Part shown: one piece after another, positions 8,342 to 46,857 of the stretch
Position numbering within the stretch: the stretch's first letter is position 1
Layout: each line of letters starts with the position of its first letter
Source of the DNA: Saccharibacillus brassicae
GTDB taxonomy: Bacteria; Bacillota; Bacilli; Paenibacillales; Paenibacillaceae
Assembly: GCF_006542275.1 (NCBI RefSeq)
Contig: NZ_CP041217.1
Location: forward strand, 5,024,501 to 5,088,500
Direction of reading: 5' to 3'
DNA: 64,000 nt
Notes under the pieces: model-generated
Databases searched by the model: none
Told to the model about the DNA's origin: nothing
The model's input: only the letters and a program-made list of their open reading frames with translations
Translations under genes and position numbers: made by a program

Positions 8342-8525
8342 TAACGAACCTCACGATCGCTATCTGCCCGTTTTCGGCTTTTTTCGTTTTTTAACGAATC
8401 GTCCTATCCTTATGAAGCGCCATCGAGGCCGTTTCAGGCCGTATTGAAGCCTATAGCGTGCTGACGATTCGTTCATATGCGATAAAAGCGCTCCGGCGGG
8501 CCAATAGCGTGTCCACGATTCGTTG
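8342..8525 (+). repeat. 184-bp intergenic element, family A, copy 1
   Basis: The rest of the 8147-8756 intergenic region carries no gene I can support. This element has four related motifs beginning TAACGAA: direct at 8342 and 8392, inverted with ends at 8474 and 8525. Spacings are 50 and 51 bp. Motif tails are ATCGCTATCTGCC, ATCCTTATGAAG, CACGCTATAG (inverted) and CACGCTATTGG (inverted). Each motif has its match, in the same order, in the reverse complement of 46024-46206, and the spacer sequences also align. No open frame or transposase is present. Confidence 0.85.
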
Positions 8526-46023: not shown

Positions 46024-46206
46024 TAACGAACCCTGGTCACGCTATTTGCTTCATAATGCGCTTTTTCGAAGGTTAACGAATCGTTATCACGCTATTTGCT
46101 CCAAAACAGCCTGAAATCGGCGTAATCGCAATAATAAGGATGTAAGGATTCGTTAGGCGAGCTCAAAAGGCCGAATATCGGCAAATAGCGATAGGATGAT
46201 TCGTTA
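46024..46206 (-). repeat. 183-bp intergenic element, family A, copy 2 (reverse orientation)
   Basis: Four TAACGAA-type motifs: direct at 46024 and 46074 (both with CACGCTATTTGC) and inverted with ends at 46155 and 46206. Spacings are 50 and 51 bp. The reverse complement aligns in full with 8342-8525, motif by motif, including the odd CCTTAT variant at 46128-46155. No coding capacity. The flanking 45908-46023 holds no gene. Confidence 0.85.
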
Positions 46207-46470: not shown

Positions 46471-46540
46471 ACTTTTAATTTGATTTTGCTTTTAATTTGA
46501 TTTTGCTTTTGGTTGATGGCGCTCGTTTTTTCAAAATAGC

Positions 46541-46712
46541 TGCGAGAGAACATCTATTTCTCCCTATGCGTGCGTGTAGAGGCGAATAGTTGCGTAGGAG
46601 CACTTATTTTCCGTTCCAAGCACCGCAAACCGTCTTTTTCCGCAAAATAAGTGGATCTACGCAGTTATTTGGCATTTCGGCGGCATTTGGCTCAAATAAG
46701 TGCTCTCCTGCA
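46541..46712. repeat. 172-bp intergenic element, family B
   Basis: Four related 20-bp motifs: direct TGCGAGAGAACATCTATTTC (46541-46560) and TGCGTAGGAGCACTTATTTT (46591-46610), and two inverted copies whose reverse complements begin TGCGTAGATC (end 46663) and TGCAGGAGAG (end 46712). The pairs are spaced 50 and 49 bp. The layout is the same as family A, but the core is different (CACTTATTT rather than CGCTATTTG). No coding capacity. Confidence 0.8.
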
Positions 46713-46719
46713 CTTAAAT

Positions 46720-46835
46720 GCTCGGCCGCACAAACCCAGCTCGGCCGCACAAGCCCCAGCTAGGCCGCACAAGCCCAGCTCGGCCGCACAAGCCCCGCTC
46801 AGCCGCACAAGCCCCGCTCAGCCGCACAAACCCAA
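46720..46835. repeat. tandem repeat, six units of 19-20 bp
   Basis: Six copies of GCTCGGCCGCACAAGCCC(A/C) with single-base changes, starting at 46720, 46739, 46759, 46778, 46797 and 46816. The array follows family B directly and ends 22 bp before the stop of the LysR gene. Confidence 0.9.
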
Positions 46836-46857
46836 GCTTCGCCCGCTCTGCTTCCCG

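What the first reader, a model, noticed from the sequence alone, without database searches (positions are those of the whole stretch)
46024..46206. A ~184-bp four-motif intergenic element present twice, in opposite orientations
Reverse-complementing 46024-46206 gives a sequence that aligns along its whole length with 8342-8525. The four TAACGAA-type motifs, their order, the odd CCTTAT variant in motif two, the inverted arrangement of motifs three and four, and the spacer words (for example GGTAT/TTCAGGC-type stretches) all correspond. Spacings are 50, ~82 and 51 bp in both. Two diverged copies keeping one geometry suggest selection on spacing, as for a protein- or RNA-structure-dependent element. 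REP/REPIN-type elements are the nearest known class; I do not recognise this one.
Basis: seen in the sequence. Interest (0 to 1): 0.85.

Follow-up and report, generated by a model that had tools for sequence, protein, structure and literature searches.

The report
Helically phased four-site intergenic DNA elements
The sequence is one of many copies of an intergenic DNA element built from four matching sites set fixed distances apart, close to whole turns of the double helix; versions with other motifs keep nearly the same ruler in related bacteria, which suggests that an unknown protein grips them.

Summary
The two window copies (131 of 181 positions identical, z 15.9) belong to a family with at least 54 sites in this genome; 53 of 56 hits are 181-184 bp although copies average 66.5% identity. 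Each element has four imperfect dyads, two forward and two reversed, centres 50-61-50 bp apart. A second family with another motif has the same ruler; one member lies at 46534-46719, beside the reported copy. A third motif in related species uses 50-70.5-50, so the central gap changes by about one helical turn. A motif search that assumes no spacing gives the same values. Relatives occur in 32 of 118 genomes, 15 of 19 genera, sampled in the family. At orthologous sites units (77-84% identical) outlast spacers (64-65%), and indels are about fivefold rarer than in flanks. Divergent (promoter) regions are avoided by the first family. No RAYT gene in any element-bearing genome, no target duplication, no long-arm covariation: REPIN membership fails. 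Best reading: a double-stranded, protein-bound array kept for sequence and helical phase, working like a BIME. The protein is unknown; how copies arise is unresolved.

The parts
46024..46206 (-). family A element (the finding), four 26-bp units, units 1-2 read on the - strand, units 3-4 on the + strand
   Evidence: profile match 1-182 of 182, 150.5 bits; alignment A1 of 39 copies
46181..46206 (-). unit 1
   Evidence: TTCGTTA at 177-183 of the element
46130..46155 (-). unit 2 (CCTTAT variant)
   Evidence: TTCGTTA at 126-132 of the element
46074..46099 (+). unit 3 (inverted)
   Evidence: TAACGAA at 51; direct repeat with unit 4
46024..46049 (+). unit 4 (inverted)
   Evidence: TAACGAA at 1
8342..8525 (+). 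second family A element; absent at the same gene junction in 8 of 8 other genomes examined
   Evidence: profile match 145.2 bits
46534..46719 (+). family B element: units at 46534-46559, 46584-46609, 46645-46670, 46694-46719, another motif, same geometry
   Evidence: profile match 162.5 bits over 46534-46717

Best explanation
A chromosomal DNA element bound in double-stranded form. Four (sometimes three, five or more) imperfect dyads of about 21-26 bp, each the size of a dimer site, are set on one face of the helix: about five turns between outer sites, about six or seven across the middle. Two sites face one way and two the other, so that an unknown DNA-binding protein could assemble, bend or wrap the segment into a compact symmetric complex. 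Such complexes, mostly in convergent or co-directional gene junctions and avoiding divergent (promoter) junctions, would act as topological or transcriptional buffers between genes, as BIMEs are thought to do in E. coli (recalled). Shown: the units, the ruler in three motif families, retention of units over spacers at orthologous sites, the avoidance of divergent junctions by family A. Inferred: a protein binds, complex shape, function. Unknown: the protein, and how new copies arise.
For: Family size and fixed length: 53 of 56 hits 181-184 bp, mean pairwise identity 66.5%, maximum 82%, flanks 30% over 41 copies. Same ruler with unrelated motif: family B. Third motif: 50-70.5-50 in the 8 of 12 relatives' loci where all four units were found. 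Spacings of 333 unique adjacent B-type pairs: 228 at 49-52, 91 at 59-62, 3 at 70-72, 1 at 82, 10 at 99-113, none at 53-58, 63-69 or 73-81. Geometry-free pattern in the own genome: 154 units, reversed control 0; in the 71 of 154 places listed, all 27 gaps under 120 bp are 49-51, 60-61 or 110-111. Orthologous sites: 19 pairs, element identity 0.74 with 2.7 indel events per element against 21 per 300 bp of flank; units 0.836 against spacers 0.644 (A, 12 pairs), 0.774 against 0.647 (B, 7 pairs). Of 20 loci from G004/G010, 16 lie where this genome also has an element. Context: family A 24 convergent, 28 co-directional, 1 divergent; element-free junctions of 250 bp or more 9, 16, 11; convergent against divergent p = 0.00015. 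No covariation of the long arms in 24 gap-free copies; RNAalifold covariation term 0.14.
Against: No binding protein was found; genes beside the largest arrays look ordinary by eye (no domain search). Positions turn over: only 4 of 13 loci of G007 and 1 of 7 of G001 lie at sites matched to an own element; the 8342 copy is absent in 8 of 8 relatives; family A is absent at two more sites in G004 and G010. 86 of 118 genomes of the family gave no match and 7 of 16 of the genus, so the element is not essential, or the models miss divergent motifs. For family B the avoidance of divergent junctions is not significant (3 of 22, p 0.087), and the convergent excess over all other junctions is not significant for A (p 0.073) or B (p 0.15). 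As single strands elements fold better than shuffles: mean z -7.1 (25 A) and -3.8 (15 B) against -1.6 (20 flanks). One dyad pair of B units (positions 6/21) covaries: 141 pairs against 121.6 expected, p 0.0005. Most pairs come from loci fetched with models of this geometry.
Confidence: 0.55

Rival explanations
1. A non-autonomous mobile element (MITE-like): the dyads are transposase sites, the ruler is what the transposase needs, and copies are remnants of past bursts.
For: Dispersed multi-copy, inverted ends; site gains and losses between species; tandem clusters with 231-232 bp repeats; different families occupy the same junction in different species.
Against: No target-site duplication: exact flanking repeats of 5 bp or more in 1 of 54 copies, as expected by chance. 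No clean empty site: at 3888415 this genome has about 450 extra bases, not 182. No pair of the 41 copies above 82% identity. Unit-specific conservation at orthologous sites after insertion. No transposase was identified, but only PF01797 was searched.
Confidence: 0.25
2. An RNA or single-stranded DNA hairpin element, such as a transcript-end stabiliser or a processing signal.
For: Better folding than shuffles; B-type and C-type units are hairpins of -4 to -11 kcal/mol; 6/21 covariation in B units.
Against: A-type units barely fold (-0.1 to -1.8 kcal/mol) yet keep the same ruler. No covariation of arms nor at dyad pairs 7/20 and 8/19; at 10/17, 11/16 and 12/15 pairing is below expectation. Spacings step by about one helical turn. 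No Rfam match in the window at gathering thresholds.
Confidence: 0.12
3. Operators of a large regulon, each controlling an adjacent gene.
For: Dimer-sized dyads in phase resemble multi-operator loops (recalled).
Against: Family A: 1 of 53 junctions divergent, 24 convergent; neighbouring genes differ in kind by eye; the site at one junction is absent or replaced by another family in relatives.
Confidence: 0.08

Closest known systems
BIME (mosaic REP elements of enterobacteria)
   Same: short intergenic palindromes in alternating orientation, mosaic arrays, preference for gene 3' ends and junctions (BIME facts recalled; listings only)
   Different: units here are 21-26 bp dyads at 50-61-50 or 50-70.5-50 bp; no Y1 transposase; occurs in Paenibacillaceae and one other family of the class
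REPIN / RAYT system
   Same: inverted repeats dispersed in extragenic space; REPIN spacings also cluster (71 and 110 bp in P. fluorescens SBW25; passages of PMC3116915)
   Different: four units, not two; no PF01797 gene in any of nine element-bearing genomes of the genus; spacing kept in copies that are only 66% identical
bcr1 and other bacterial MITEs
   Same: 150-200 bp, multi-copy, inverted ends (bcr1 named in passages of PMC3733652; its details recalled)
   Different: no target-site duplication in 54 copies; internal phased sites; units conserved over spacers at orthologous sites
CRISPR arrays
   Same: 26-bp palindromic repeats separated by 24 bp in some long arrays
   Different: spacers are conserved between copies, orientation flips mid-element, dispersed at dozens of loci

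Membership tests
REPIN / RAYT | Y1 transposase (RAYT, PF01797) in the genome | tested here: not met
   0 matches in this genome; 0 in all nine element-bearing genus genomes; 1 of 16 genomes positive, G009, which has no elements; control genomes ring
REPIN / RAYT | two inverted REPs with a spacer | tested here: not met
   four units, two per orientation, in nearly all copies
REPIN / RAYT | GTAG or CGTC tetranucleotide beside the palindrome (PMC3733652 title and abstract) | not tested
   no count of such tags at unit ends was made
BIME-like intergenic mosaic | extragenic, avoiding promoters | tested here: met
   own ORF caller: family A 24/28/1 convergent/co-directional/divergent against 9/16/11 element-free; family B 10/9/3, p 0.087; 1 of 56 A hits overlapped a 71-codon ORF call
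BIME-like intergenic mosaic | binds gyrase, IHF or another protein | not testable with these tools
   -
MITE | target-site duplication | tested here: not met
   54 copies: k=4 7 against 4.2 expected, k=5 1 against 1.1, k=6-9 none
MITE | precise empty site in relatives | tested here: inconclusive
   absent in relatives at 8342, 3888415 and 3882616, but never as a clean 182-bp difference
MITE | cognate full-length transposon with the same ends | not tested
   no transposase family other than PF01797 was searched
CRISPR array | unrelated spacers | tested here: not met
   spacers alignable between copies, with conserved T and A tracts
CRISPR array | adjacent cas genes | not tested
   no cas search was run
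known RNA family (Rfam 15) | match at gathering score | tested here: not met
   0 matches in the whole window

The most novel reading that the evidence does not exclude
A class of bacterial chromosome sites, not found described in the papers searched: face-phased dyad arrays, several motif families per genome, each read by its own rapidly evolving DNA-binding protein that folds the segment into a compact complex and so separates neighbouring, above all convergent, transcription units. Motif and protein change together between species while the helical ruler stays.
Probability: 0.35. Interest if true: 0.88.

Novelty: new variant of a known kind. Interest (0 to 1): 0.7.

Why it matters
Fixed spacings in whole helical turns, kept in three motif families and several genera while the sequence between sites drifts, are strong evidence for a nucleoprotein structure repeated dozens of times along a chromosome. 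If a dedicated protein binds it, Paenibacillaceae would offer a new, easily mutated system for how bacteria insulate convergent genes or organise DNA. The different families in one genome, and their replacement at the same junction between species, make co-evolution of site and binder directly testable.

Tried and rejected
RAYT link: rejected. Rfam: no match. Long-hairpin RNA: RNAalifold and arm-pairing tests gave no covariation, but folding z-scores are low, so kept as a rival. Target-site duplication: not found. Clean empty site: sought at 8342, 46024, 3882616 and 3888415; absence found, clean junction not. Partner gene beside the five largest B clusters: ordinary-looking ORFs by eye, no domain search. 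CRISPR: spacers conserved. Literature: eight searches, including four unit words as sequence strings (66 papers, 15 listed); no listed title or abstract describes this element. Passages were seen of PMC3733652, PMC2267715, PMC4060949 and PMC3116915; the first three do not contain the word Paenibacillus. BIME, bcr1 and loop-operator statements are recalled except where passages are cited.

Weak points: the gene caller is my own and simple; loci of relatives were fetched by models with this geometry; the own loci set contains only element sites, so shared-site counts cannot show own empty sites; unit models miss divergent motifs; arm pairing used only 24 copies of exactly 182 bp.

Full report
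What was checked. The window lies at C1:5024501-5088500 of a 5.62-Mb single-contig genome. The two window copies align end to end, 131 of 181 positions, z 15.9.

Family A. A DNA search with the 46024 copy gave 42 rows in the own genome. A profile from 39 copies, run over the stretches fetched, gave 56 hits, 53 of them 181-184 bp long; merging hits within 400 bp leaves 54 sites. Over 41 copies mean pairwise identity is 66.5%, the highest 82%, the flanks 30%. The conserved parts are four units, consensus TAACGAATCNTCATATCGCTATTTGC, units 1-2 forward, 3-4 reversed; unit 2 usually has CTTATT in place of GCTATT. Dyad centres in 182-bp copies lie at about 11, 61, 122 and 172: spacings 50-61-50 (derived). 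A more symmetric subgroup scores almost alike on both strands. Variation in unit number exists: one five-unit copy (1426466) and precise loss of unit 4 in relatives (S. deserti at the 46024 locus; S. qingshengii at another).

Family B. Beside the reported copy, at 46534-46719, four units of RAATAASTGC-N6-GCASTTATTY have the same arrangement. The own genome gives 34 rows by DNA search and 136 rows, both strands counted, by model. Some sites are long arrays on the same 50-bp phase (1379900-1381060, 2374250-2375220, 5138200-5139020). In 40 own loci 240 units were found, 1 in shuffled sequence.

Third motif. In G005, G011 and G012 units of the type TAACGGATCG...CCGTTA or ...GACGCTTA occur in the same two-forward, two-reversed order. 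In 8 of 12 loci examined all four units were found, with outer spacings of 49.5-50.5 and a central spacing of 69.5-71.0; in the other four loci (L075, L084, L087, L093) three units or fewer were found.

The ruler. Over 333 unique adjacent B-type pairs from all loci, 228 are at 49-52 bp, 91 at 59-62, 3 at 70-72, 1 at 82 and 10 at 99-113; nothing lies at 53-58, 63-69 or 73-81. The best-fitting period is 10.3 bp over all pairs and 9.9 over the 21 outside the two main peaks. Because those loci were fetched mostly by models with this geometry, I searched the own genome with a unit pattern alone: 154 places with at most one mismatch, none for the reversed control. In the 71 of 154 places that were listed, all 27 gaps under 120 bp are 49-51 (18), 60-61 (5) or 110-111 (4). 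Gaps of 50, 61, 70.5 and 82 differ by 9.5-11.5 bp, close to one turn of B-DNA. This is the main reason to prefer protein on double-stranded DNA.

Distribution. Both models ring in the same 9 of 16 genus genomes. In the family sample the B model rings in 32 of 118 genomes and 15 of 19 genera (E 1e-6, strict filters). In a class sample it rings in 3 of 299: the own genome, one of the same family, and G160 of another family with three matches of 185-186 bp, whose sequence shows four units by eye. A motif-free palindrome scan of 22 loci from other genera gave two or more centres in 10, with 21 spacings, 17 of them 50-52, 61, 102 or 111; the 12 others gave too few centres to tell.

Conservation at orthologous sites. 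Of 20 loci fetched from G004 and G010 for their elements, 16 have both flanks matching an own site that also has an element; for G007 it is 4 of 13 and for G001 1 of 7. In 19 orthologous pairs element identity averages 0.742 with 2.7 indel events, against 21 per 300 bp of flank, where the alignment is near random. Units are 0.836 identical and spacers 0.644 in 12 A pairs; 0.774 and 0.647 in 7 B pairs. A neutral relic would lose units and spacers alike. One A pair (L044/L122) compares an A copy with the symmetric subgroup and has 12 indels; it is included.

Gain and loss. The 46024 element is at the same junction in G004 (three units) and G010 (four); in G001, G012, G011 and G005, where the kinase gene is still adjacent, there is none; G014 shows B-type units there; in G007 and G013 the neighbouring gene differs. 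The 8342 element is absent in 8 of 8 other genomes with the upstream gene. At 3888415 the two genes abut in G004 and G010, while this genome has about 450 bp with an A element; at 3882616 G004 and G010 have a 240-bp junction without an element and G001 a B-type element. So sites come and go, families replace each other at a junction, and no clean insertion boundary was seen. There is no target-site duplication in 54 copies.

Context. By my own ORF caller 24 of 53 junctions with family A are convergent, 28 co-directional and 1 divergent; element-free junctions of at least 250 bp in the same stretches are 9, 16 and 11 (convergent against divergent p 0.00015; convergent against all others p 0.073). 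Family B: 10, 9, 3 (p 0.087).

Single-strand structure. Elements fold better than mononucleotide shuffles: mean z -7.1 for 25 A, -3.8 for 15 B, -1.6 for 20 flanks. Inverted arrangement alone produces this. Copy-by-copy arm pairing in 24 gap-free A copies does not exceed what column composition gives (units 886 against 896 expected, spacers 257 against 248), and RNAalifold finds no covariation. Within B units one of the dyad pairs (6/21) covaries, pairs 7/20 and 8/19 do not, and inner pairs are below expectation.

Judgement. It works most like a BIME: an intergenic, promoter-avoiding, mosaic palindrome element. It is not a REPIN by the features tested, not a CRISPR array, and not an Rfam family. 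The step from conserved helical phase to a bound protein is inference; the protein, the function and the way copies spread are not shown.

Noticed in passing
window 46720-46846: A 19-bp tandem array (GCTCGGCCGCACAAGCCCA, six copies) directly abuts the family B element.
   Followed up: no
L139, L142, L144, L157, L158 (G010, G011, G005): A different repeat of roughly 200-250 bp with inverted halves (…GGAAGCGAGAAGACGGAGAG…, …AATCGGGAAAATTCC…) recurs at gene junctions, including the 46024 junction in G010.
   Followed up: no
own genome 3547248-3918301: 13 of 54 family A sites fall in 375 kb; p 0.0035 against random placement, window length chosen after seeing it.
   Followed up: partly
own genome 1379900-1381060 (L199): B-type array of more than 20 units with repeated flips of orientation on one 50-bp phase.
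   Followed up: partly
own genome 1267697-1268344 (L198): Three near-identical B elements in tandem, 231-232 bp apart: the most recent-looking duplication seen.
   Followed up: no
L258-L260, L262, L265, L267: In other genera many units have the core TGCAAAAGTGCA, giving near-perfect hairpin palindromes.
   Followed up: no
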